This document shows, piece by piece, positions 27,783 to 42,326 of a stretch of 64,000 bases of DNA. The notes beneath the pieces are model-generated. The model was not told the origin of the DNA and ran no database searches. It saw only the letters and a list, made by a program, of their open reading frames with translations. The translations under genes and the position numbers were made by a program. This stretch comes from Halarchaeum rubridurum (GTDB taxonomy: Archaea; Halobacteriota; Halobacteria; Halobacteriales; Halobacteriaceae): NCBI RefSeq assembly GCF_014647115.1, contig NZ_BMOO01000003.1:310001-374000 (forward strand). Reading direction: 5' to 3'. Each line of letters begins with the position of its first letter. The first letter of the stretch is position 1.

Positions 27783-30700
27783 GCTTCAACCCCACAAGGG
27801 TACGTCTGAAACACCGTCGACGCGGACGTCTCGCTCTGCTCGGTCTGCGCTTCAACCCCACAAGGGTACGTCTGAAACGACGTCGCTGAACGCCGTGTCA
27901 CCGGCACCCTCGGCTTCAACCCCACAAGGGTACGTCTGAAACGTGATCGGTCACGTCCACTCCTCCTCGTCGAGCAGGCTTCAACCCCACAAGGGTACGT
28001 CTGAAACGACGCACGCTCTCCCGTCCGTCGTGCCGCCTCCTCGCTTCAACCCCACAAGGGTACGTCTGAAACACGTCGCGTGAGAGTGACGAGAGCGCGC
28101 CGAGTGCTTCAACCCCACAAGGGTACGTCTGAAACGCGTCCAGCCAGATAACCAGTCCCGGCCAGGCAGAGCTTCAACCCCACAAGGGTACGTCTGAAAC
28201 CGCCGCGTTCGGCCGCATACCGCATGGCTTTGCGCTTCAACCCCACAAGGGTACGTCTGAAACAGGTGGGCTGTATTAGATTCTATCGTATTCGTCAGGC
28301 TTCAACCCCACAAGGGTACGTCTGAAACCGTCGGACCTTGCCCGCCCGAGCCACGGGACACGTCCGCTTCAACCCCACAAGGGTACGTCTGAAACGAGGT
28401 GGATGCACGCACACTTGACCCCGTTGGCCCCGCTTCAACCCCACAAGGGTACGTCTGAAACACATCGTTGTGTGGGTCGTGACGGGGTCACCGACTTGCT
28501 TCAACCCCACAAGGGTACGTCTGAAACGCCTACTTCTTGACGACTATCGCCGCCGACCGCGTCGCTTCAACCCCACAAGGGTACGTCTGAAACCTCGCGG
28601 ATGACTACACGGAGGAGATGGAGGTCTACGCTTCAACCCCACAAGGGTACGTCTGAAACCCTGAGTGGGGGTCGTTCATCGAGCGGAGTGAGCGCGCTTC
28701 AACCCCACAAGGGTACGTCTGAAACAAACCGAGCAGCAGGGCGCGGACGTCCTTGAAGTGGCTTCAACCCCACAAGGGTACGTCTGAAACTTCACGATGC
28801 AGTCGGGGGAGACGTTGACGAGTTCCGCTTCAACCCCACAAGGGTACGTCTGAAACCGAGAGCCGTGGTGAGGTTCCGCATATCCATTTCGTGCTTCAAC
28901 CCCACAAGGGTACGTCTGAAACCGTTCCCGATTCTCGACCTGCTCGGCGGCAGTACGGGGCTTCAACCCCACAAGGGTACGTCTGAAACGCCGCGACTAC
29001 GACCGCTGGGTCGCTGACCTCGAAGCTTCAACCCCACAAGGGTACGTCTGAAACGGCATCCTTCTCGGCGTGCCCCTACGCCTCTTCCACGCTTCAACCC
29101 CACAAGGGTACGTCTGAAACCGTCTCGGCGGCATCCTCGGCGTCACTCCGCGAGGAGCTTCAACCCCACAAGGGTACGTCTGAAACTCCGCGTCATCGAG
29201 ATTCTCGCGGACGACGGCGCTGCTTCAACCCCACAAGGGTACGTCTGAAACTCTCGCGGAAGCTAACGATGTGATCGTACATTGTGGTGCTTCAACCCCA
29301 CAAGGGTACGTCTGAAACACTCCCCATTCATTCCGGACTCGGAGCTCGACGCGGCGCTTCAACCCCACAAGGGTACGTCTGAAACACGGCCTTCAAGGGC
29401 GCGAAGTCGTTGCCGTGGACGCTTCAACCCCACAAGGGTACGTCTGAAACTATAGGTTGTGTAAATATTGTTGTGACAGAGATAGAGCTTCAACCCCACA
29501 AGGGTACGTCTGAAACCAGATGCGCCCCGAGTAGCTGAGCGCGACCCCGACGCTTCAACCCCACAAGGGTACGTCTGAAACGCATCAATCGCCCCGCTCT
29601 CAGTCGAGTTGATAAACGACGGCTTCAACCCCACAAGGGTACGTCTGAAACGCGGGCGCACGCATCACCCCATACCCCAACTCGTGGCTTCAACCCCACA
29701 AGGGTACGTCTGAAACGAACTTCACTCACGGACGCAACGGCGTTGTAGCCGCGCTTCAACCCCACAAGGGTACGTCTGAAACTGAGTCTTGAGGGTGTTT
29801 CGGACGCGACGCCGCGCTTCAACCCCACAAGGGTACGTCTGAAACGCCGTGTACGTACTTCAGCCTCGCGGGTAATCATGAGCTTCAACCCCACAAGGGT
29901 ACGTCTGAAACCGACTGGTAGTCCGTTGTCAGCGAGTGATCAACGTGCTTCAACCCCACAAGGGTACGTCTGAAACGAGCACCCATCGGAGTCGACCGCG
30001 TGGATTCTCAAGGCTTCAACCCCACAAGGGTACGTCTGAAACCGTCCAAGAGGAGGGCACTGCCCTTCGGCTTGTTCAGCTTCAACCCCACAAGGGTACG
30101 TCTGAAACCGGCAAGTTGAGGAGGCTGAGCAGCAAGCCTCGCAGGCTTCAACCCCACAAGGGTACGTCTGAAACTCGCCGACGCGCGTTAACGAGAGATT
30201 GACGTCGACGCTTCAACCCCACAAGGGTACGTCTGAAACGCGCTGGGGCGGACTCACGGCGCGCAACGAGCACGGAGCTTCAACCCCACAAGGGTACGTC
30301 TGAAACTGGACCTATCGAATAACAATCACAGGATCGGTGAGCTTCAACCCCACAAGGGTACGTCTGAAACCCGGCCTCAACGCGACTGTGACGGCCGTGA
30401 CGGAGCTTCAACCCCACAAGGGTACGTCTGAAACAGCCGGATGATCCCCAGAGTCTAACGGAGCTCTGGCTTCAACCCCACAAGGGTACGTCTGAAACCG
30501 ACGACAGCCGTCGGCCTGCAGCTCGGAGCCGTCGAGCTTCAACCCCACAAGGGTACGTCTGAAACTCGACCCAAGACGTCCCAAACCACTCACACCGCAA
30601 GCTTCAACCCCACAAGGGTACGTCTGAAACCCGGCGCTCGTCGAGAAGCGCGCGGCGGGCGAGTTGCTTCAACCCCACAAGGGTACGTCTGAAACCGTCG

Positions 30701-32860
30701 CTCGTTGAGGCGTGCCTGGCGGCCGTCGACGCTTCAACCCCACAAGGGTACGTCTGAAACCGACGTGCCAGGTCTCGCCGTCGACGTCCCACGACCGCTT
30801 CAACCCCACAAGGGTACGTCTGAAACCCGCTTCGTGGCTCGGGTGATTCTCCATGACTGACAGCTTCAACCCCACAAGGGTACGTCTGAAACCACGTCGG
30901 GCGGCACGTGCAGCTACGCGTCCGTTCTGCTTCAACCCCACAAGGGTACGTCTGAAACTGATTCGATACCTCTTGGTCAGATACGTACTTATCGCTTCAA
31001 CCCCACAAGGGTACGTCTGAAACCTCGGCGCCGAGGAGGGGGACGGGGAGAGCTAGCAGCTTCAACCCCACAAGGGTACGTCTGAAACGACGCGCTCGAC
31101 GCGCTCGACGAGGACGTCGAGCAGGCTTCAACCCCACAAGGGTACGTCTGAAACCCCCCACTGGTCTACGTAATCCTCCTCGAAGTTGCTTCAACCCCAC
31201 AAGGGTACGTCTGAAACGTTCGAGAGCCACGTCCCCTCGCGCTCGACGCGGTCGCTTCAACCCCACAAGGGTACGTCTGAAACGCCTAAACCTGCGCGAG
31301 AGCCGCCAAGAACGCGAGGCTTCAACCCCACAAGGGTACGTCTGAAACCACCTCCGCCGACCCACCATCACCAACGAGATACACGCTTCAACCCCACAAG
31401 GGTACGTCTGAAACGCGGTAGCCAGCCCGTCGCGGCCAGACTCCCGACCAAGCTTCAACCCCACAAGGGTACGTCTGAAACTGCACGCCGTGAGTCCGCC
31501 CCAGCGCCGATTTCGTCGCTTCAACCCCACAAGGGTACGTCTGAAACCACCCGGCGTAGAGCTTCTTCGCGCGCCCCGGATCGCTTCAACCCCACAAGGG
31601 TACGTCTGAAACACCGCCAGCCCCCACATGATCATCCCTGCCGGGTTCCTGCTTCAACCCCACAAGGGTACGTCTGAAACACCGAGGCGTCACTCCACAA
31701 CCTGACTGCAACCCGGCTTCAACCCCACAAGGGTACGTCTGAAACCCCGGCCTCAACGCGACTGTGACGGCCGTGACGGAGCTTCAACCCCACAAGGGTA
31801 CGTCTGAAACGTCAGCGGTTCCACTTCGAGTGGCGGCTCTCCGAGCTTCAACCCCACAAGGGTACGTCTGAAACGAACGAAGACGGCGGACGCCGAGGTC
31901 CGTAGCCTATGCTTCAACCCCACAAGGGTACGTCTGAAACTATCAAACTACCGCCACAAAAGACCGCGTAGCAAGAGGCTTCAACCCCACAAGGGTACGT
32001 CTGAAACGACGTCCTCCGCGACGTCCTCGCTCTCGACGTCGTCGCTTCAACCCCACAAGGGTACGTCTGAAACCCGATGCGTCCGTCCTTGATGCGCTCG
32101 CGCAGTTCGTGCTTCAACCCCACAAGGGTACGTCTGAAACCGATGCCGGAGCACCGGAAGAAGGTCGAGAAAGCCGCTTCAACCCCACAAGGGTACGTCT
32201 GAAACACGGCTACACCGTCAAGGAGCGGATCGCGCTCTCGCTTCAACCCCACAAGGGTACGTCTGAAACCACGGTGCGAGGTACGTCTTGCTCCCGATGT
32301 ACGGGCTTCAACCCCACAAGGGTACGTCTGAAACACACTCAAGACGGCGACGCTCGACGAGCTGGAGGAGGCTTCAACCCCACAAGGGTACGTCTGAAAC
32401 CTCGTCCGCCTCCCGGACGATGCTGACGAGATTATCGCTTCAACCCCACAAGGGTACGTCTGAAACGCGCATGCTCGGGTAGCCGACGACGCCCGACCAG
32501 TGGCTTCAACCCCACAAGGGTACGTCTGAAACCGCAGGTCGGGAGGACCGCAGGGACGACCGAGTGAGGCTTCAACCCCACAAGGGTACGTCTGAAACGA
32601 GGAGCCGGATGATCCCCAGAGTCTAACGGAGCTCTGGCTTCAACCCCACAAGGGTACGTCTGAAACCACCCTGGAGGCCGCTTCGGTTCCCGTAGGAGAG
32701 GCTTCAACCCCACAAGGGTACGTCTGAAACTAATGACTGCATCAAGTGGGTGCCGACGAACCGAGTGCTTCAACCCCACAAGGGTACGTCTGAAACCAAC
32801 CGTGACAACACGCCAGTTGGGTGAGTCGGCGCTTCAACCCCACAAGGGTACGTCTGAAAC
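27783..32860 (-). CRISPR. CRISPR array, 78 repeats and 77 spacers, type I-B
   Basis: A 30-bp repeat, on the plus strand starting GCTTCAACCCC and ending GTACGTCTGAAAC, occurs 78 times by my count. First copy is 27783-27812 and last 32831-32860. Spacers are about 32-40 nt (mean near 36). Repeats appear identical throughout, including both ends. On the minus strand the repeat reads GTTTCAGACG...TTGAAGC, the orientation of haloarchaeal type I-B crRNAs. With cas2 and the AT-rich leader on the right, transcription runs right to left and the newest spacers are on the right. Numbering spacers from the left, spacer 40 matches 61, 41 matches 74, and 38 overlaps 57 in reverse. Confidence 0.98.
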
Positions 32861-32961
32861 CATGGCGATTTTGCTCACCATATCACTTCTACCAGCGGTA
32901 TACACTTCATCATTTCCGTCGACCCTCAATCCCCCCGAACCCCCTGGGGGGTCGACATCAG
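32861..32961 (-). promoter_or_regulatory. CRISPR leader with palindromic block
   Basis: About 100 bp between the cas2 stop and the first (newest) repeat. The part next to the array is AT-rich with TATA-like sequence (GTGTATACC on the minus strand, about 32897-32905) for pre-crRNA transcription. The distal part, 32918-32956, is a G/C-rich palindrome (GTCGACC and GGTCGAC outer arms, CCCCC/GGGGGG inside). Leader sequences direct Cas1-Cas2 integration at the adjacent repeat. Confidence 0.75.
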
Positions 32962-33222
32962 CTAGAGGAACCGACTATCTTCGGCCGGATCATCCCCGTA
33001 CACGGTACGGTTCAATAGCCGGTCCGAAGAGAGTTCGTAGACCATGACTGATTCTCCCTCCTGAAGGATATCTTCAATCTCCCCTTTCAGTGTCGCTAGA
33101 TCTCCCTCCGAAATTTCCCCTTCCAGTACTGAGTTCTGGACGTGAATAAGATAGCGGCGACAGAGCTTTAGCATCAGGTGGGTCCTATCAGCCTCCATGT
33201 CGTAGACGACGATGACGTACAT
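32962..33222 (-). CDS. cas2: CRISPR adaptation protein Cas2
   Basis: This 86-residue protein is ferredoxin-like, starting MYVIVVYDMEADRTHLMLKL with the conserved D8 after the first strand and the usual second half (SVMVYELSSDRLLNRTVYGD). Cas2 bridges two Cas1 dimers in the spacer-integration complex. It directly follows cas1 (its ATG at 33222 abuts the cas1 stop) and is the last gene of the operon before the leader. Confidence 0.95.
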   Translation of the reverse strand: MYVIVVYDMEADRTHLMLKLCRRYLIHVQNSVLEGEISEGDLATLKGEIEDILQEGESVMVYELSSDRLLNRTVYGDDPAEDSRFL

Positions 33223-34215
33223 CTACCACCATCGCTTGAACGAATCATAGGATTCGCCGGTTAACAAGTGCTTTTTGAGCTTGTATGCCTCCAAGCGAAG
33301 CAGATACTGATAGCTCACCTTCCGGTTCAGCGTCGGGTGCTCGACTGTTCGCTCGAGTGTCTCTTCAAACTCCTTCAGAAACGTCGTTCGTCCTTCCTCG
33401 TTAAGTAGACAGGAGCCAACCTCGTCTCGGAAATCGTCCCGGTTGATCTGCTTACGGTTGACCAGTCTGAACAGCAGCCGATCCGTTAACACTGGTTTGA
33501 ACAGGTCGGCGATATCCAGCGAAAGGGAGTAGCGCCGTTCTCCCGGCTCGTGGAGATAGCTGATGGTCGGGTCAAGTGCGGTAGCACGGATTGCGGAGAC
33601 ACAGTTTGCGTACACCATACTGTTCCCGAACGAAATGAGCGCGTTCACCGGATTCGGTGGTGGGTTGTACTCTCGGCCGTCGAACGCGAACGAGTCGGGA
33701 AGAACCGCCTTGAACGTCTGGTAGTACGCTCTCCGGGCCGTTGCTTCCACACCCATGAGCTCGGAGATATCGCCAGCGTCATCGATACGCGCAGCCGCGT
33801 TGTCCAATTCGTCGATTACGCCCTCAAGCTCGTACTCCCGACTGTTGTAGTACGTGACGTTCGTCCGCATGTTGTGGATACTCCCACGGACGAACGAGGC
33901 AGCGAGAGACTGCCGTTGCTCGGGATCGTCGTACGCCCGGACCTGCTTGACGACAGTTCGACCGCTCGTCTGGCCGCGTTCGGGCATCAGTGACCCTGCA
34001 TAGCGATCGTTCCATCCGAAGACATGGACAGCAACGCCGTGGTCGTTGAGAAACGACATCAGCCGCGTGTTGTAGTCGATCTGTCCGTGCAGATAGATCG
34101 CCTCAGCGTGTTCGACGGGGATATGTTTTTTCTCGCCGTCATCGGTCTCTAGCCGAACTGTATCCTCGCTCCGTTCGATGCGGCCGTCCGAAAAGATGTG
34201 GTAGTTTTTGTCCAT
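33223..34215 (-). CDS. cas1: CRISPR integrase Cas1
   Basis: The protein has 330 residues from ATG 34215, two bases after the cas4 stop. The type I-B Cas1 pattern is clear: N-terminal beta domain (NYHIFSDGRIERSEDTVRLE), then a helical catalytic domain with E in VEATARRAYYQTFK, H in YLHEPGERRYSLSLD, and D in LDIADLFKPVLTDR, the three metal-binding positions of Cas1. It inserts new spacers at the leader-repeat junction. An open frame extends 11 codons upstream into cas4 but lacks conservation. Confidence 0.95.
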   Translation of the reverse strand: MDKNYHIFSDGRIERSEDTVRLETDDGEKKHIPVEHAEAIYLHGQIDYNTRLMSFLNDHGVAVHVFGWNDRYAGSLMPERGQTSGRTVVKQVRAYDDPEQRQSLAASFVRGSIHNMRTNVTYYNSREYELEGVIDELDNAAARIDDAGDISELMGVEATARRAYYQTFKAVLPDSFAFDGREYNPPPNPVNALISFGNSMVYANCVSAIRATALDPTISYLHEPGERRYSLSLDIADLFKPVLTDRLLFRLVNRKQINRDDFRDEVGSCLLNEEGRTTFLKEFEETLERTVEHPTLNRKVSYQYLLRLEAYKLKKHLLTGESYDSFKRWW

Positions 34216-34217
34216 GG

Positions 34218-34763
34218 TCAGACCCAACAGAAGTCGTGATAGGCACACGACTCGCAGTACGGTTTCTCAGTGGCTTCCGGCGGGCTGTCCGCGGTCACGA
34301 CCGCGTGAATCCCTCGTATTGCCGACTCAACTTTGTCGCATCGGTCGTCGTCGAGGGAAACGTCCTCACGTCGACGCTCAGTCGGGTGTGCCAACACGCC
34401 CTCACGTTCGACGCCTAATACCCGGTCGAGGTACCAGAGGTAGTACGAGAGCTGCATTCGTGCTGGCTCTGTCAACGTCGATGAGGGTTTTACCTCCACC
34501 ACCCGACCGTCTTCAAGTAGGTCGAGAGCGATCATCCCGAGTCGAAGGTTCTCTTGTGAACGTTCGCCGTAGGAGGACTCATCGACGCGGGTCCCTCGGG
34601 CAACGCTTGCGTTCTCCCGGTCGATTTCGACGTTCCGGCTCTCGAACCAGAGCTCGCGTTCACAGACATAGTAGTACTGCACCATCACGCCAGTGACGCG
34701 AAACGGGTTGTCGACAGCGTCGCCTTGTGCCGTGGCCACCAGCCGAGAGACGGGATCGCTCAC
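34218..34763 (-). CDS. cas4: CRISPR-associated Cas4 nuclease
   Basis: The 181-residue protein is a RecB-like PD-(D/E)XK nuclease with an iron-sulphur cluster. First cysteine is in GVMVQYYYVCERELWF, the active-site strand is VVEVKPS (E-x-K), and the C-terminal cysteines are in KPYCESCAYHDFCWV. Cas4 trims prespacers and helps select the PAM during adaptation. Its start overlaps the cas3 stop by 4 bp and it is followed immediately by cas1, the normal I-B order. Confidence 0.93.
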   Translation of the reverse strand: MSDPVSRLVATAQGDAVDNPFRVTGVMVQYYYVCERELWFESRNVEIDRENASVARGTRVDESSYGERSQENLRLGMIALDLLEDGRVVEVKPSSTLTEPARMQLSYYLWYLDRVLGVEREGVLAHPTERRREDVSLDDDRCDKVESAIRGIHAVVTADSPPEATEKPYCESCAYHDFCWV

Positions 34764-37447
34764 AGTAGACGTGCCTCCACGCTCGTGTCAGGGATGACGA
34801 CGCCATCGGTGGCGTCGAAGTAGCCGTCATGCCGTCCCGGGCGCCCGTCGAGCACCAGCCGGTCGGTGTCGGGGAACAGCGGCTCGCATGCAGCGAGCTT
34901 CTCCATCGTGTCGTCGTCGCCGGGGTAGACGGGAACGGAGACCTGCCAGTCCGCGGTCGACTCGACGAGGTCGTCCAGGTCGTCCCACCGGTACTCGCTG
35001 AACGCTCGCCGGATCTCTTCGACGGTCTCGCGCTCATCGGCCGTTCTCGTCACGATCACGTCGACGGCGGGCCGCTCGTCGATAAGTGAGAGTCGCCCGA
35101 GCTGTTCAGCTTCTGCCCGCTCAAGGTACTCCACGTACTCGTCGGCACCGACGTCACGCCCATCGAGCAGGTCGAAGTAGTGTTCGACGGCGCCTCGAGT
35201 AACGTCTGGCTCGGGCATCGGGCCACCGTCGTAGACCGTTGCCAGCGCTTGGCCAGTCAATTTGGTGAGGCTTTCTCCTCGACCGTAGACCGCGCTTGCA
35301 GGCGTGGTCTCACGGTTCGGCGGCGGTGCGAGCTGCCAGATCGTCACGCGCCCACGGTTGCGGTCGTATGACCGGTTACACCGACCCGCAGCCTGCACGA
35401 GACTGTCCATCGGCGCGAAATCACGGATGACCTCGTCGAAGCTCACATCGACGCCCGCCTCGACCAGCTGGGTGGAGACGAACAACACTGGTTCACCCGC
35501 CTCGGTGAGGTCGGACGCCACGTCGATGAGGTGGCGTCGGTCACACGGCCGGTGGCGTGTCGTGAGGTGGACCAACAGCGGTTGTCCCGAGCGTCGTCGA
35601 CGGGTCGCCTCGGTACGTGTTCGCTCGGCCGGTATCGATTCAGTCGATTCATCCGCGACGTCAAGCAGTTCGTCGTACACCTCATTGACGTCCACTGGTG
35701 TTGCTCGGTCGGCAACTGACTTGGCGAGCTCACGCGCGCTGTCGATCGTGTTGCAGATCGCCAACACCGAATCGCCGTCCTCGGCCCGGGTCGCGACCAG
35801 GTCGCCGGCTCGGTCGTAGGAGAGTGCTGCTGACTCCGCGCCGTCGTCGATCGTGTCGCTCTCTTCACTGTCCTGCCCGGGAAGGATTGCGGTCGCGGAC
35901 GGGTGAAGCACGAAGTCGAGCCGGTCCAGCTCGTCGTAGTACGGGTCAGGATCCGCGACAAGGGAGAACGGCTCTCTGTCGCCCGCAGACAGGAGTTCGG
36001 GCTGGGTGGCTGTCATGGCGATTACCGACGCACCGTACTCTTCGGTCAACAGCTTGACCAGCCGGTCCACAAGTGGCCACCACTCAAGCGGCAGCGCCTG
36101 CGGTTCGTCGAGAACCACCACGCTCCCGTACAGCGAAGGGAGCTTCATCGAGCGGGCGTTTGTCGGCCCGGCCAGACTCTCGAACATCTGGACGAACGTC
36201 GTCACGACCATCCCCGACCGCCAGCTCTCGCCGAGGAGGGCGGCGACGTTCTCGACGGCGTCGTCAGCGACTGATTCGGGCTCATCCGGCGGCGAGACGA
36301 GGGTATCCGCAAGGTGGTGGTCGACGGTGAGCTGTTCGCCTCTCTCACCGGCCCCGAACAGCTCACGGCTCTGTTCAGCCACCTGATCGATAATAGACGT
36401 GTACGGAAGTGCATAGACAAGGCGCCCCTCGTTCGGGTTTGACGCCATCTCACTCCCCTCGAGCACTGTTAGGGCGGCGTCCAGCCCCGTGAGTGTCTTC
36501 CCCATGCCTGTCGGGAGCGTCAGCGTCGCGACGTTCCGATCGTCATCGACGAACTCTTTGGCGCGAGCGTGAACCTCCTGTCGAGCGTCCTCGCGCCGCT
36601 CGTTCATCCGTTCCGTGGGCGGGTCCAGCTCTGCCTCAGCGTTCTCAGTCTGGAGTTCGTCGATGTACGCGTCGATTTCTAGCCGCCCAGGGGTCGGCGA
36701 CCGGTAGGCCTCCCGGCCGATTTCGATTCCGGTCGATAGGTGCGTCGCGCTCGCCTTGTCGGCGAAGACGAGCGCACTCCAGACCTGTAGTACTGACTCG
36801 TAAAAGCCGGGAGGAAGTTTCTCCGGTGCGGGGCGAAGTCGCCGGCCGCTACAGACGGCTTCCGCGACCCACGAGAGCTCGATAGCCGCATCGGAATCGG
36901 CGAGCCGTTCGTGGAACGTTTCCCAGTCTCCAGCACCACCCGTCGCTCGGTCCACGAGTTCCTCGGCGAGTTCAGGAACCGTCTCGTCGATGTGTGCTGC
37001 CTGTTCGAGCGCGTCGGACCGGTAGAGTGTCTGGATCCGTCCGGACTGCTCGACGCTCGCTCGGTGTACGTAGTCGGCGGTATCGGGGAGGCGTCCGTGG
37101 TGTCTCGCGACGGCCAGAAAGCCGACGAGCTGATCGGCGCCGTCGAACCCGCGTGCCTCCAACGCGTAGTGGGCGAGTAGCGCCGATATCGGGGCGTGGT
37201 GTTTCGGTCCAGCTGGCTGTGCGTCGTCCGAGAGGAGATGCTCGCGGAACCACGCGGTCAGCTTTCCGAAATCGTGGACTCGTGTCACCACCTCCGCCAA
37301 CTCGGAGAGCGAGTTCCCCTCCGGCGTCTCGGCGTCGTCGGGGACGAGCCATCCGACCCGCTCGCGGACGTCGTCGAGATGTTCTTCGAGTGGGATCCGT
37401 TCCCCGTCCGGTCCGATATGTGACGGTCGGACGGTGAAATCGACCAT
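34760..37447 (-). CDS. cas3: CRISPR effector nuclease-helicase Cas3 (HD plus SF2 helicase)
   Basis: An 895-residue protein with both Cas3 domains. The HD nuclease has H58-D59 (TRVHDFGKLT), KHHAP (82-86) and ARHHG (114-118). The superfamily 2 helicase has Walker A LPTGMGKT (311-318), the DEAD-box equivalent DEPQ (447-450), MTATQP, and a C-terminal helicase half with STQLVEAGVDVSFD and QAAGRCNR. Cas3 is recruited by Cascade to unwind and shred target DNA. All key residues are present. Starts 19 bp after the cas5 stop and overlaps cas4 by 4 bp. Confidence 0.97.
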   Translation of the reverse strand: MVDFTVRPSHIGPDGERIPLEEHLDDVRERVGWLVPDDAETPEGNSLSELAEVVTRVHDFGKLTAWFREHLLSDDAQPAGPKHHAPISALLAHYALEARGFDGADQLVGFLAVARHHGRLPDTADYVHRASVEQSGRIQTLYRSDALEQAAHIDETVPELAEELVDRATGGAGDWETFHERLADSDAAIELSWVAEAVCSGRRLRPAPEKLPPGFYESVLQVWSALVFADKASATHLSTGIEIGREAYRSPTPGRLEIDAYIDELQTENAEAELDPPTERMNERREDARQEVHARAKEFVDDDRNVATLTLPTGMGKTLTGLDAALTVLEGSEMASNPNEGRLVYALPYTSIIDQVAEQSRELFGAGERGEQLTVDHHLADTLVSPPDEPESVADDAVENVAALLGESWRSGMVVTTFVQMFESLAGPTNARSMKLPSLYGSVVVLDEPQALPLEWWPLVDRLVKLLTEEYGASVIAMTATQPELLSAGDREPFSLVADPDPYYDELDRLDFVLHPSATAILPGQDSEESDTIDDGAESAALSYDRAGDLVATRAEDGDSVLAICNTIDSARELAKSVADRATPVDVNEVYDELLDVADESTESIPAERTRTEATRRRRSGQPLLVHLTTRHRPCDRRHLIDVASDLTEAGEPVLFVSTQLVEAGVDVSFDEVIRDFAPMDSLVQAAGRCNRSYDRNRGRVTIWQLAPPPNRETTPASAVYGRGESLTKLTGQALATVYDGGPMPEPDVTRGAVEHYFDLLDGRDVGADEYVEYLERAEAEQLGRLSLIDERPAVDVIVTRTADERETVEEIRRAFSEYRWDDLDDLVESTADWQVSVPVYPGDDDTMEKLAACEPLFPDTDRLVLDGRPGRHDGYFDATDGVVIPDTSVEARLL

Positions 37448-37466: not shown

Positions 37467-38261
37467 TCACGAGAACATCACCCGTCGACCGTCGACCTCG
37501 TGGGTCTGGACGTCCTGTACACGGAGTGATTCTGCTCCAGTTGCGTACGCAATCGACTGGAACGCCGTCGCCGTCCGACCACCTTCGTCGGCCGCCATGA
37601 ACGCCGGTGAGCGTTCGACTTTGACCGCCGTTTCAGGGGTGAGTTCGACACTATCGACGGCTTCGAGCACCGCCGAATCGACATCGGTAGTCTCGCGCTC
37701 GTGTGGCGTTACCTCGAACTCGCCGAGATACGTGACCTCTGCAAGATGCTCCGAGAGGCCGAGACTTGGCGGGTAGTAGGACGTCCCATCGCGGAGTCGG
37801 TCCTGCAGTCGGCCTCGGAGATCGTCGTTCGCGAGCTGAAGATCGACACGGTAGGCTGGTTCGACCAGCACCTCGTAGTTGTGTTGCTGGCGGAGCTCTG
37901 ACGGGTCCGGCATCGAGATTCGTGCATGTCCGCGGCTGGGCATCGTCGTCATGTGCTCTTTGGCCGTCGAGAGCGTGTTCATCGGCATATTTATCGTTCG
38001 GAGCTCGTCGATCGGCTCCACCGCGACAGCCGACACATCCGGGCCGAACGCCTCGTAGTAGCTGTCTCGTCCCAGGCCGAGAATCGCGGCGACGAGGCCG
38101 GCGACGGTCGTCCGGGGAATGATCCGATACGTCTGTTTGACGATGTTCCCCTCGACCCGTCGGAAGTGCCCCCACTCCCCACGGAGTTCGAACGAGAGAC
38201 ACGTCTCCGGGAGCCCGTCGCCCTCGTCGGTCCAGCTCTCAAGTGACTCTTCGGTCATCAC
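37467..38261 (-). CDS. cas5: Cascade subunit Cas5 (type I-B)
   Basis: The 264-residue protein has an N-terminal RRM-like half (CLSFELRGEWGHFRRVEGNI) leading into the conserved helix PRTTVAGLVAAILGLGRD of I-B Cas5. It caps the 5' handle of the crRNA at the foot of Cascade. ATG 38261 overlaps the cas7 stop by 4 bp. A second Met follows directly, so the start is uncertain by one residue. Confidence 0.92.
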   Translation of the reverse strand: MMTEESLESWTDEGDGLPETCLSFELRGEWGHFRRVEGNIVKQTYRIIPRTTVAGLVAAILGLGRDSYYEAFGPDVSAVAVEPIDELRTINMPMNTLSTAKEHMTTMPSRGHARISMPDPSELRQQHNYEVLVEPAYRVDLQLANDDLRGRLQDRLRDGTSYYPPSLGLSEHLAEVTYLGEFEVTPHERETTDVDSAVLEAVDSVELTPETAVKVERSPAFMAADEGGRTATAFQSIAYATGAESLRVQDVQTHEVDGRRVMFS

Positions 38262-39376
38262 TCGGGCATCGTCGCGGCAGCCTCATCGTAGACGTCGACG
38301 ACCTCGACCGCGTCGCCGACAGCCTCGCGGAGCGCGTCGTAGAAGCCGTGTTCGTTGGGCTCATCGCCCGCAGTGTAGACCTCATCGCCGACAGTCACGT
38401 CGAGCACGTCGCTGGCGACGACACGCACACGGGCGATACGGTCGGCGTGGCGGCCCAGTCGGGAGACGAGCTCAGTCCCATCGAGCGTGAACTCTCGGAC
38501 GTTTCGGAGTTCGTCCACGGGGGCCGAGTGCTCTTCGTCGATGTCGAGGTCACGGGTGAGCCCACCGAGGTGGAAGCTCTCGTCCTCGTACTCCACACGG
38601 AGGTAGAGTCGTGGCTCTTGGCCGACCTTGCTCCGGCTGATGGTCTGATTCTTGATCGCGCGCCACGGGAGGGTGTCGAGACGCTCGACGTCCGCCTCAG
38701 AGAGTTTCGTGTCGGCGGCACCATTCTCGTCGACCAATCCGTGAAACGCGATAAAGCCGTACTGAATACGGTGGTCGTCAAGGTCGAACCCACCCTGATC
38801 TTTCCCCTCACCGGTCGCGATAACGCTCGTGAGACTGTTGTACTCCTCGTTCTCGGTTACAGGGTGAAGCGTCTTCGCGGGCGAGAACTGGACCGGCCCG
38901 GTAAAGTGGTCCGGAAGGTAGTCCTCGAACCCCTCGTAATTTCTCTTCATATCGACGCTCATCGTCGCACCGAAGTAGCGCACGTCGGCACTGGCGTCAA
39001 GGAATGTGCCGAATACTTCCTCGCGGAGTTCGGCTGCCTCGTCGTCGTCCAGATTGTCGAGATCCCAGTCGTCGGGATCCAGTTCGCGCATCCGGTCGGC
39101 AAGCAGGTCTTCACGCGAGGACTGCTTGCCCGCCTCGTTTTTGACGTTCCGCACGTAGACGCCGTGGCCGTCGTCGTCTAGCTGGTCGCGGAGGTAGCGC
39201 TTTAGCCGGACGTCGGTCACGATCGCCTGCTGGGTCTCGGGATCGATTCGCGGCCGGTTCGCCCCGCTCAGGGGGTTCCCGTTCGGGTTGGCGTCGACGG
39301 CGTCGTAGCAGAAGACGATCTCGGATCGGTTCGTTACCGGGTCGTAGCTGTCGTCAGCGTATGTGTCGTCGGTCAT
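38258..39376 (-). CDS. cas7: Cascade backbone subunit Cas7 (Csh2, type I-B)
   Basis: The 372-residue protein has the typical I-B Cas7 opening: FCYDAVDANPNGNPLSGANR, then RIDPETQQAIVTDVRLKRYL. An RRM core follows (FGATMSVDMKRNYEG, TGPVQFSPAKTLHPV). Several copies polymerise along the spacer part of the crRNA. Overlaps cas8b and cas5 by 4 bp each, so expression of the Cascade genes is coupled. Confidence 0.95.
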   Translation of the reverse strand: MTDDTYADDSYDPVTNRSEIVFCYDAVDANPNGNPLSGANRPRIDPETQQAIVTDVRLKRYLRDQLDDDGHGVYVRNVKNEAGKQSSREDLLADRMRELDPDDWDLDNLDDDEAAELREEVFGTFLDASADVRYFGATMSVDMKRNYEGFEDYLPDHFTGPVQFSPAKTLHPVTENEEYNSLTSVIATGEGKDQGGFDLDDHRIQYGFIAFHGLVDENGAADTKLSEADVERLDTLPWRAIKNQTISRSKVGQEPRLYLRVEYEDESFHLGGLTRDLDIDEEHSAPVDELRNVREFTLDGTELVSRLGRHADRIARVRVVASDVLDVTVGDEVYTAGDEPNEHGFYDALREAVGDAVEVVDVYDEAAATMPE

Positions 39377-41523
39377 GCTTCTTCCTCCTCGGCTGCGGGC
39401 TGGCCATCGGCCTGTTCGTCGTCGCTGCTCGCCCAGTTGTTCATCCCGTAGGCAACCCCGAGCGAGTAGTAGAATCGAAGGTCCGTCGTGTCGAGTTCCC
39501 AGTCGCCGTCGATATCGATCTGGGGGAGCGTCGTCACCAGCCGATCGACAACCTCGCTGTACATCGTCCCCGCCATATTGTTCTCCCGGGAGTAGACGAT
39601 GTTCTTGTCGAGCACGTCGCTGGCAAGGCGCTTCAGCTTCGACTCTGTGACAGCCTTGATCGGGTACTGGTCGATTAGGGTCGTCGAGCGGCCCTCACTG
39701 ACTTGCTGGTAGCCGGTTACTTGACCAACCAGTGCGCCGAGGAGGAAACTGCCACGTCGTTCCGGCTGGTCCTCCGCGAGCGCCGGCGTCTGTTCAAGGA
39801 ACTGTTCGAGCTTCATCTCCCGAGCCGCGGCGACGTTCCCGCCGTCAGCCCGGGCTGGTGTATCCTGTTGCATATCGTCTGTATGGTTGTGTGTCAACTG
39901 CCGCGGCTCTGCGACCGGCTCGTACGCGTCGCGTCCGGTGAGAAGCCCCGCTTCGGCGAGCGCACAGAGCTGTGCGTACTGTGCGGAGACACGGAAGCTC
40001 GGGAACTCCTCGCCCTCGTCCTCGAGCAGGCGTTCCACGTACTCTGTGAGCACCGTCTCGACATCGAGCGGTTCACCCGAGAGCACAGCCACGAGCGCAC
40101 GGATCCGGTAGTCGTCGGCGCTGGCGTCGTCGTCATCGGCCGGCGCGAACGTCTGTTCGAAGTACCAGCCGGTTGCGAGGATGCTCAGCAATGCCGACTC
40201 CTCCGGAACGAAGATGTCCCAGTTGTCCGGTGTCGGGAACGCGGCTCGAAGCCCCGGATTGGGGTAGTCGGCGTCACCTTCCGCGTCGTACAGCCACGAC
40301 TGGAGCACTCGCTGGTGGGCTCTAGTGAGCTCGACGGGCGAGAATAGCGTCCCGTCCATGCTGTCGCCGAACACGTCGAAGCGCTTCGTCTGGTGTTCCA
40401 TCACTGCGGCGACGTAGAACCGGAAACGGTCTCCCATTTCCTGCAGTCGCGGGATGTCCTGATAGCTTCGATAGGCGCTCTCCAGCGGACTCATCTCTCC
40501 GGCGTGTACCAGGTCGTAGAGGAGTCCGTAGAGGTCCCTCGCGTCTGCCGGACCGAGCCGCCCGAAGAAGTACGGGAGGTAGTAAACGTTCGCTCCCATC
40601 GTGTAGTAGTCGCAGGCGTCGACGAACGTACTCGCGTTCATCAGCGTCACTGCAACGTCTTCCGAGACTGGGTGTGTCCGCCACGCCTCGTCTGGATCGA
40701 ACCCGGGGAACTTCTCGAGCTGCTTGCCGAGGAAGTAGTTCAGCGGATCCTCCGCTGTCCCGACAGTCGGGCCTCGATTGCCGGTCACGAGATCGGTTGC
40801 CTCGCCGATGGAGTCCGTGGCCTCTCCCTTCGAGACGAGCTTCGATCGCTTGCGCGCTCGCATTGCTTCGTTGAACACGGTACTCGCCTCACCCGGGAGG
40901 AGATACTCGCCGTCAGGCTCGGATTTGACTGCGACGGTCGTGAGCGCCGTCGTCTTGCCGTCGAGCTGTTCGTCGACGGCTGTCTCGATGCGTTCTCTAA
41001 GTCTCTCACTCTCGCCGAGCTCGGCGAGCGCGTCGACGATCCATCCGTCTTCGTGATCAGCGGCAGCCTCTTGGATCACGTCGTCGGCCGCCCACGCGGT
41101 GAGCCGTTCGTGGAGGTACTCAGCGACCTTTTCGGGCTCTTTGTTCTTGCCCGTTCGGTGGGTGACACTGTGGTCGAACCCTTTTGCGGCGTTATACCAT
41201 GAGTGGGCGACTGCCTCGACTTTTTCTTCACCGTAGCTCTCGACACCAATCGGTTGGTCGGGGTCGAGGCGGGGCTTGTCCCCACTCAGATCGACGCGGA
41301 GATAGAGTAGGCTCTCGGGCTCGTCGAACAGGTCGGTCGATTTCTCCGGCGTCAGGTAGGCTGCGTACTCGCCACCTCCAGCGGTTGCGAGCGTGTATAG
41401 ACGCCCGTAGACGTACTGGAGATCGCGGAGCGAGGTGATCGGTCGATCAGGCAGCTCGCCCGCTAGCTTCTCGTCGTCGCTGTAACGCTTCTCGAACGTC
41501 GACGGCTCGGGGAGCAGACTCAT
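39373..41523 (-). CDS. cas8b: Cascade large subunit Cas8b (Csh1)
   Basis: This 716-residue protein is assigned from position (between cas6 and cas7), length and haloarchaeal Csh1 features such as MSLLPEPSTFEKRYSDDEKL, DVFGDSMDGTLFSPVELTRA and the helical C-terminus (NMAGTMYSEVVDRLVTTLPQ, LRFYYSLGVAYGMNNW). Cas8b recognises the PAM and holds the non-target strand. Cas8b is poorly conserved in sequence, so no single motif proves it; gene order is strong support. Overlaps both neighbours by 4 bp. Confidence 0.9.
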   Translation of the reverse strand: MSLLPEPSTFEKRYSDDEKLAGELPDRPITSLRDLQYVYGRLYTLATAGGGEYAAYLTPEKSTDLFDEPESLLYLRVDLSGDKPRLDPDQPIGVESYGEEKVEAVAHSWYNAAKGFDHSVTHRTGKNKEPEKVAEYLHERLTAWAADDVIQEAAADHEDGWIVDALAELGESERLRERIETAVDEQLDGKTTALTTVAVKSEPDGEYLLPGEASTVFNEAMRARKRSKLVSKGEATDSIGEATDLVTGNRGPTVGTAEDPLNYFLGKQLEKFPGFDPDEAWRTHPVSEDVAVTLMNASTFVDACDYYTMGANVYYLPYFFGRLGPADARDLYGLLYDLVHAGEMSPLESAYRSYQDIPRLQEMGDRFRFYVAAVMEHQTKRFDVFGDSMDGTLFSPVELTRAHQRVLQSWLYDAEGDADYPNPGLRAAFPTPDNWDIFVPEESALLSILATGWYFEQTFAPADDDDASADDYRIRALVAVLSGEPLDVETVLTEYVERLLEDEGEEFPSFRVSAQYAQLCALAEAGLLTGRDAYEPVAEPRQLTHNHTDDMQQDTPARADGGNVAAAREMKLEQFLEQTPALAEDQPERRGSFLLGALVGQVTGYQQVSEGRSTTLIDQYPIKAVTESKLKRLASDVLDKNIVYSRENNMAGTMYSEVVDRLVTTLPQIDIDGDWELDTTDLRFYYSLGVAYGMNNWASSDDEQADGQPAAEEEEA

Positions 41524-42326
41524 CCGTGGACCTCCGTTGCGGGTTCGCCGTACGGGTCGCGTTTCTCGACCAGATTACAGAAGCCCAGCCCTAGCGCGTT
41601 TCGTTCCCCAAGCCCGCAGTCCAGTGCGAGGTTGAGGTGGCGTCGATGGTCGTCGTCTCTGACGGTGTAGTTGAACTGCCACTTCGAGAGCACGAAGGTT
41701 AGCTCCTGGTCTACGGTTACCTGAAGCGGGACAGCGAACGTCTTCAGTAGCTCGTAACCCTCGAAGAGGTCGCCCTCAGTGTCGCTTGGGTCCGGAAGGT
41801 ATTCTGGGCTGAACAGATCGTGTTTCTGGTCGAGATTCGCTTCGAGCTGCTCTCGCAGTGGCTCGATTGTATGTTCTGGCTGCCAATACACCGCCTCTTC
41901 GCCGGGGTTCTCAATCCCATAGTCGTCACAACGCCATGGCGGGATTCGTACGAGGAGTCCAGTACCAGTCTCAATCGTCCCGCTGCTCCCTGGTTCACCG
42001 ACATCCGGTGACAGTGACGTGAGATCGTCAATGTGGAACGGCATCTGGCCGATATTGAGCTCGCGATTGGCAGTCAGGTTTTCCGCAACATCGGCCAGTA
42101 GTTGCTCTTGGGGGGCCGAAATCAGCAGAGTTCGCTCGTCTCCTTCCTGCATATCTCCCGGCGGGAAGGGGTTACTGTAATTGAATCCGGGTGGGCGGTT
42201 TTCGTCATGGTACTGTTCGTACTCCGTGTCCTGCAACGCTCGCCAGATCCGACCTCGGAGCTTGTGGTGATACGTGTTGTCGTATGCGGCATCAGCGCGC
42301 GCGTGTAGCCGTGCTAGTAGTCTCAC
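41520..42326 (-). CDS. cas6: crRNA-processing endonuclease Cas6
   Basis: The 268-residue protein shows the Cas6 hallmark, a glycine-rich loop near the C-terminus (LDCGLGERNALGLGFCNLV), and an N-terminal RRM-like fold with a possible catalytic histidine in AYDNTYHHKLRGRIW. Cas6 cuts the pre-crRNA inside each repeat, leaving the 8-nt 5' handle typical of I-B. First gene of the operon. The start is GTG 42326, with TATA-like sequence (about 42338-42347, minus strand) close upstream. Confidence 0.9.
   Translation of the reverse strand: MRLLARLHARADAAYDNTYHHKLRGRIWRALQDTEYEQYHDENRPPGFNYSNPFPPGDMQEGDERTLLISAPQEQLLADVAENLTANRELNIGQMPFHIDDLTSLSPDVGEPGSSGTIETGTGLLVRIPPWRCDDYGIENPGEEAVYWQPEHTIEPLREQLEANLDQKHDLFSPEYLPDPSDTEGDLFEGYELLKTFAVPLQVTVDQELTFVLSKWQFNYTVRDDDHRRHLNLALDCGLGERNALGLGFCNLVEKRDPYGEPATEVHG

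What the first reader, a model, noticed from the sequence alone, without database searches (positions are those of the whole stretch)
30371..32636. Two older spacers were captured again with the same PAM-side end but a different length
Numbered from the left (oldest), spacer 40 (30371-30404, 34 nt) and spacer 61 (31746-31780, 35 nt) are the same sequence apart from one extra base. Spacer 41 (30435-30468, 34 nt) and spacer 74 (32599-32636, 38 nt) are the same apart from four extra bases. In crRNA orientation (minus strand) both pairs share the 5', PAM-proximal end exactly and differ only at the 3' end. Copying of array segments would give identical lengths and neighbours. Different lengths anchored at one end fit separate acquisitions from the same PAM with a loose ruler. 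Two neighbouring old spacers each having a newer twin suggests repeated contact with one virus or plasmid lineage.
Basis: partly seen in the sequence, partly recalled or inferred. Interest (0 to 1): 0.7.

Follow-up and report, generated by a model that had tools for sequence, protein, structure and literature searches.

The report
Two CRISPR spacers re-captured, different lengths
A salt-loving archaeon's CRISPR array holds two older invader-derived memories that it later took again from exactly the same start point but cut to a different length, and its second, unrelated CRISPR system sampled one of the same targets, which points to repeated attacks by a small group of invaders.

Summary
The type I-B array (78 identical repeats, 77 spacers, 27783-32860) contains twins 40/61 (34/35 nt) and 41/74 (34/38 nt). 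Each pair shares its crRNA-5' end; protospacers of other spacers in this array place a TTC PAM at that end. The twins differ only at the PAM-distal end. Spacer 74's extra GAGG is not repeat sequence, so 74 cannot be a plain copy of unit 41. A spacer in the genome's second CRISPR system (type I-D) overlaps the 40/61 target by 29 nt and reads on past it, showing that spacer 61's extra base matches the target. A true unit duplication elsewhere in this genome looks different: adjacent and equal in length. Independent re-acquisition with a loose PAM-distal ruler, already described for type I systems, is the best explanation (0.87). No protospacer of either pair was found. Neighbouring spacers 38 and 57 (exactly) and 35 and 59 (approximately) encode pieces of a BLv25-like spindle-shaped halovirus, so recurrent contact with that lineage is supported for the region. 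That 40 and 41 come from it, or from one genome, is not shown. It is a clean instance of a known phenomenon, strengthened by cross-system recapture.

The parts
27783..32860 (-). Type I-B CRISPR array, 78 identical 30-bp repeats, 77 spacers; crRNA sense is the minus strand, leader to the right
30371..30404 (-). Spacer 40 (older twin, 34 nt)
31746..31780 (-). Spacer 61 (newer twin of 40, 35 nt; extra base at the PAM-distal end, confirmed as target sequence by I-D spacer a2-6)
30435..30468 (-). Spacer 41 (older twin, 34 nt)
32599..32636 (-). Spacer 74 (newer twin of 41, 38 nt; four extra bases, GAGG on +, not repeat sequence)
30240..30276 (-). Spacer 38, overlaps the target of 57 on the other strand; encodes AGADSRRATST of a BLv25-like ATPase
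31482..31517 (-). Spacer 57, encodes DEIGAGADSRRA of a BLv25-like ATPase; one synonymous difference from 38
30043..30078 (-). Spacer 35, encodes NKPKGSALLLD, in frame just upstream of the 38/57 site of the ATPase (8 of 11 residues as in BLv25)
31613..31650 (-). Spacer 59, encodes RNPAGMIMWGLA, resembling BLv25 ORF4
28857..28892 (-). Spacer 17, TTC protospacer in the HRTV-29 portal gene (4 mismatches); PAM evidence
32270..32304 (-). Spacer 69, TTC protospacer (1 mismatch) in a methyltransferase-like gene of two haloarchaeal genomes; PAM evidence
32861..32961 (-). Leader-side interval between the newest repeat and the cas2-sized ORF (leader inferred from position)
32962..33222 (-). cas2-sized ORF (86 aa) directly downstream of cas1; called cas2 from position and length, not profile-tested
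33223..34248 (-). cas1 (type I-B)
34218..34763 (-). cas4
34760..37447 (-). cas3 (HD + helicase)
37467..42326 (-). cas5b, cas7/csh2, cas8b/csh1, cas6

Best explanation
The twins are independent re-acquisitions. The I-B adaptation machinery captured a fragment at a TTC PAM, fixing one end exactly; the opposite end was trimmed imprecisely (34 against 35 and 38 nt). Later, when the same or a nearly identical element returned, the same PAM was used again and the other end was trimmed elsewhere. The cell already carried a crRNA with full identity to the target when the second copy was captured, so the re-capture was probably fed by interference or priming (inferred). The type I-D system of the same cell sampled one of the same targets. 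Shown: shared PAM-side end, distal length difference, that 74 is not a plain copy of unit 41, target sequence beyond spacer 40. Inferred: the priming route and the identity of the invader.
For: Shared crRNA-5' ends and distal differences; TTC at that end for spacers 69 and 17; GAGG of 74 is not repeat sequence; I-D spacer a2-6 reads the 40/61 target onward as G-CTGCAACTC, so the extra base of 61 agrees with the target; a real duplication in this genome (a3-21/22) is adjacent and equal in length; PAM-distal cut inaccuracy is the main cause of odd lengths in type I-F (PMC5059440); capture continues in immune H. hispanica cells (PMC3936756); adjacent spacers 38 and 57 show return of variants of one gene.
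Against: The protospacers of both pairs are unknown, so the PAM at these two sites and the continuation GAGG of 74 are not directly seen. For 40/61 the extra base also equals the neighbouring repeat base, so the agreement with a2-6 is one base only. Reacquisitions are rare in a database survey (8 among 24,090 spacers, PMC11472070).
Confidence: 0.87

Rival explanations
1. Single-unit copying inside the array (recombination between repeats) followed by a small indel at one spacer edge.
For: Unit duplication occurs in this genome (a3-21/22) and dominates repeated spacers in a survey (695 of 805, PMC11472070). For 40/61 the extra C abuts a C-ending repeat, so slippage in a C run could make it.
Against: Two separate single-unit moves over 21 and 33 units, each followed by an indel exactly at the PAM-distal edge, are needed; a copy of 41 cannot gain GAGG (74 would have to be the parent and 41 later deleted); a2-6 shows that the extra base of 61 agrees with the target.
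Confidence: 0.08
2. Assembly or sequencing error: lengths or positions of the units are wrong.
For: The genome is a 25-contig draft; a one-base difference in a C run (40/61) is a common kind of error.
Against: All 78 repeats are identical and the array is clean; a four-base non-homopolymer difference with different neighbours is not a usual error; a separate array supports the base in spacer 61.
Confidence: 0.04
3. Re-capture from the array's own DNA (a spacer taken from the CRISPR locus) rather than from an invader.
For: Spacer 61 equals spacer 40 plus the last repeat base, as it would if cut from the array.
Against: Impossible for 74 (GAGG is not in unit 41). On the array the base triplet next to the shared end is repeat, not TTC, so no PAM would be present. 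The a2-6 continuation fits an invader.
Confidence: 0.01

Closest known systems
Variable PAM-distal trimming in type I adaptation (Staals 2016, PMC5059440, type I-F; Li 2017 on I-B spacer size, title cited in PMC7694759, text not readable here)
   Same: One end fixed at the PAM, the other end scattered; odd lengths come from the PAM-distal cut
   Different: Those are laboratory populations; here the two lengths sit in one natural array, separated in time by 20 or more captures
Spacer reacquisition as classed by SpacerPlacer (PMC11472070)
   Same: The same target captured again by an array that already holds it
   Different: Survey reports 8 cases among 24,090 spacers; here 2 among 77, with length differences that separate them from copies; definitions differ
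Primed and continued adaptation of the Haloarcula hispanica I-B system (PMC3936756)
   Same: Type I-B, TTC PAM, new spacers taken by cells that already carry a matching spacer
   Different: Priming itself cannot be shown from a finished array
Spindle-shaped haloviruses His1 and Halorubrum BLv25
   Same: Peptides of spacers 38 and 57 exact, 35 and 59 in part, in ATPase ORF1 and ORF4 of BLv25
   Different: DNA identity is too low for BLv25 to be the protospacer source; peptides of 40/61 and 41/74 are not significantly placed in it

Membership tests
Type I-B CRISPR-Cas (haloarchaeal) | cas8b/csh1, cas7/csh2, cas5b, cas3, cas6, cas4, cas1b beside the array | tested here: met
   NCBIfam and PADLOC profiles; the cas2-sized ORF was not profiled
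Type I-B CRISPR-Cas (haloarchaeal) | TTC PAM at the crRNA-5' side of protospacers | tested here: met
   Spacers 69 and 17 have TTC, spacer 76 (5 mismatches) has TTG; only two independent sites
Independent re-acquisition at one PAM | Exactly shared PAM-side end with a different distal end | tested here: met
Independent re-acquisition at one PAM | Extra bases are target sequence, not repeat | tested here: met
   For 61 by I-D spacer a2-6. For 74 only that the bases are not repeat; the target itself is unseen
Independent re-acquisition at one PAM | Protospacer with PAM present in an invader genome | tested here: inconclusive
   No protospacer of either pair found
Array-unit duplication | Equal length and, usually, adjacency or shared neighbours | tested here: not met
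   contrast a3-21/22
Primed or interference-driven adaptation | Dependence of the new capture on Cascade, Cas3 and a pre-existing spacer | not testable with these tools
   Needs a living system
Targets are spindle-shaped haloviruses | Protospacers of 40/61 and 41/74 lie in such a virus | tested here: inconclusive
   Neighbours 35, 38, 57, 59 match BLv25 proteins; the pairs do not significantly

The most novel reading that the evidence does not exclude
Recapture at the very same PAM is preferred over capture elsewhere in the same invader: an existing perfect spacer steers new acquisition back to its own or other hot PAM sites, and the effect reaches across two CRISPR systems of one cell (I-B and I-D). 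From overlaps that do not share a PAM (2 among about 16,300 spacer pairs) the sampled target pool is about 400 kb; that predicts 0.23 same-PAM pairs in the I-B array, and 2 are seen (P about 0.02, own arithmetic).
Probability: 0.15. Interest if true: 0.6.

Novelty: new member of a known kind. Interest (0 to 1): 0.4.

Why it matters
Arrays are read as diaries in which each entry is one encounter. Twins with one fixed and one loose end are natural evidence that a cell already carrying a matching spacer met the same invader again and captured the same site again, which bears on how complete CRISPR immunity is in nature. The overlap between two unrelated CRISPR systems in one cell gives an internal control that array copying cannot explain, and combining overlapping spacers yields a longer target sequence (44 nt for 40/61/a2-6) with which to look for the unsequenced invader.

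Tried and rejected
(1) Self-targeting: the 41/74 sequence occurs in this genome only in the array. The own-genome match to 40/61 turned out to be a spacer of a second array, not a provirus. (2) A GTC (type I-D) PAM for spacer a2-6: withdrawn after re-orienting the I-D repeat (it ends in ATTGAAAC, and the degenerate terminal repeats lie away from the cas genes); its PAM flank is unknown. (3) An 11-mer shared by 41/74 and I-D spacer a2-13: chance level in a gapped test. (4) Placing 40/61 and 41/74 in BLv25 ORF6 next to the a2-9 site: attractive by eye, not significant (shuffled-peptide p 0.12-0.28 and about 0.05, chosen after looking). (5) Weak genome BLAST hits to the pairs: the ten loci looked at showed no shared gene or frame, taken as chance. 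(6) Spacer 51 gave many hits that look like low-complexity matches. (7) Li 2017 on I-B spacer size could not be read; only its title is used, via PMC7694759.

Full report
Observation. The array was parsed by script: 78 repeats without a single substitution and 77 spacers. Over the shared 34 nt both pairs are identical; 61 has one extra base and 74 has four, all at the left end on the plus strand. The repeat reads GTTTCAGACG...GTTGAAGC on the minus strand, a cas2-sized ORF and cas1 lie to the right, and the targets of two other spacers indicate the PAM: spacer 69 (one mismatch, homologous methyltransferase-like gene in two genomes) and spacer 17 (four mismatches, portal gene of HRTV-29) both have TTC next to the crRNA-5' end; spacer 76 (five mismatches, HRTV-4 terminase) has TTG. 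The shared end is therefore the PAM end and the variable end is PAM-distal. This matches the TTC PAM measured in Haloarcula hispanica I-B (PMC3936756).

Independent capture or copy. If unit 41 had simply been copied to position 74, the four extra bases would have to come from the end of the repeat (GAAAC); they are GAGG. For 40/61 the array alone is ambiguous, because the extra C of spacer 61 equals the last base of the repeat. That ambiguity is reduced by a second CRISPR locus in the same genome. A BLAST of the pair sequences against the 26 genomes of the family found a 94% match in this genome's contig C2 at 13.9 kb. It proved to be spacer 6 of another array with a different repeat. That array and two more share the repeat of a complete type I-D system at C2:458-468 kb (cas6d, cas10d, csc2, csc1, cas3', cas4, cas1d, cas2). 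Spacer a2-6 shares 29 nt with the 40/61 target and reads on: after ...GGCCGG the target continues G-CTGCAACTC (crRNA sense of 40/61). The 35th base of spacer 61 is that G. With the I-D repeat in its canonical orientation a2-6 targets the opposite strand. So the same target was captured three times by two unrelated adaptation machineries.

What a real duplication looks like here. Among all 181 spacers of the genome the only other perfect repeat is a3-21/a3-22 in the I-D system: adjacent and identical over 37 nt. The I-B twins are 21 and 33 units apart, with different neighbours and different lengths. In a survey of CRISPRCasdb most repeated spacers were duplications (695 of 805) and only 8 among 24,090 spacers were classed as reacquisitions (PMC11472070). 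Two in one array of 77 is unusual, with the caveat that the survey's definition differs.

What the target is. Spacers 38 and 57 overlap by 26 nt on opposite strands with one synonymous difference. Read as coding DNA they join to FDEIGAGADSRRATSTE (the first residue assumes a TTC PAM, the last a PAM base); tblastn found 88% identity over these 17 residues in ORF1 of Halorubrum spindle-shaped virus BLv25. ORF1 carries a P-loop-like GKTT motif, is related to His1 ORF16 and to genes in 28 of 392 haloarchaeal genomes. Restricted to annotated BLv25 proteins, with 2,544 shuffled peptides as control (best control score 38), the matches of I-B spacers 57 (59), 38 (52) and 59 (45) and of I-D spacers a2-9 (53, ORF6), a2-13 (46, capsid ORF2), a4-20 (41, capsid) and a4-6 (40, ORF9) exceed every control; spacer 35 (38, equal to the best control) lies in frame immediately upstream of the 38/57 site. 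In a wider six-frame search over 22 viral and proviral stretches only 57 and 38 exceeded the controls, so the others are weaker evidence. Both CRISPR systems thus appear to record repeated contact with variants of this virus group, and spindle-virus spacers sit beside the twins (35 and 38 near 40 and 41; 57 and 59 near 61). The twins themselves could not be assigned. Their peptides (ELQPGLNATVTAVTE and EEPDDPQSLTELW in the likeliest frames) are not significantly placed in BLv25. Exact, degenerate and mismatch-tolerant searches of phage records, plasmids, IMG/VR, GTDB genomes and 384-392 haloarchaeal genomes found nothing credible beyond the arrays. That 40 and 41 come from one genome is a reasonable guess, not a result.

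Mechanism. [quoted passage not shown] in I-B of H. hispanica capture continues after a cell is immune (PMC3936756). The older twin was present when the newer was taken, so a crRNA with full identity to the target was available. Interference-fed or primed capture is the natural route, but this is inferred. A rough count asks whether hot sites are needed. If PAM sites were used evenly, two same-PAM pairs among 77 spacers imply about 1,460 sites, or 47 kb of target (95% interval about 13-390 kb). The two overlaps that do not share a PAM imply about 400 kb, which predicts 0.23 same-PAM pairs; seeing two has P about 0.02 (own arithmetic). This hints at preferred sites and is no more than a hint.

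Verdict. The phenomenon (loose distal ruler, re-acquisition) is known; the value lies in the natural, time-separated pair of cases and the cross-system recapture. The lineage claim is supported for the surrounding spacers, not for the pairs.

Noticed in passing
Own genome C2:458334-468303 (L119:8335-18304); arrays at C2:13547-14979, 454018-457410 and 468419-471.3 kb: A complete type I-D system with three arrays (104 spacers) accompanies the I-B system. Cas10d is split: the C-terminal part (profile 817-946 of csc3) is a separate 146-aa ORF overlapping the end of the 835-aa ORF, where other I-D systems are described as making Cas11d from inside cas10d.
   Followed up: partly
I-D spacers of C2 arrays, L125-L127: I-D spacers are biased: A at the PAM-adjacent base in 42 of 103 (19 expected) and G at the fifth base from the distal end in 63 of 103 (34 expected). 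The first bias recurs in two related genomes (18 of 42, 6.8 expected); the second does not clearly.
   Followed up: partly
window 32467-32502 (spacer 72); own genome C1:600208-600243 (L037): Spacer 72 matches a chromosomal gene of the same genome perfectly (a TatC-like protein by its look, not profile-tested); the flank is GCG, not TTC, so it is probably harmless to the cell.
   Followed up: partly
Own genome C2 array a3, spacers 21 and 22: Two adjacent identical 37-nt I-D spacers, a plain unit duplication.
   Followed up: yes
window 32270-32304 (spacer 69); L039, L040: Protospacer with TTC in a DNA methyltransferase-like gene (DPPY motif) present in two genomes of different families, probably mobile.
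   Followed up: partly
window 28857-28892 and 32731-32766 (spacers 17, 76): Diverged matches to the portal gene of HRTV-29 and the terminase gene of HRTV-4.
   Followed up: partly
GenBank OQ850971.1 (L056): BLv25 is filed under Caudoviricetes, yet its ORF1, ORF2, ORF4, ORF7 and ORF8 match His1 (Halspiviridae), so the taxonomy line looks wrong.
   Followed up: partly
Own genome C2 spacers a2-13 and a4-20: Two I-D spacers encode variants of the same stretch of a BLv25-like capsid protein (LWGIIPVIVVLA, ALWGILPVLLV), another hint of repeated contact with variants of one virus group.
   Followed up: partly
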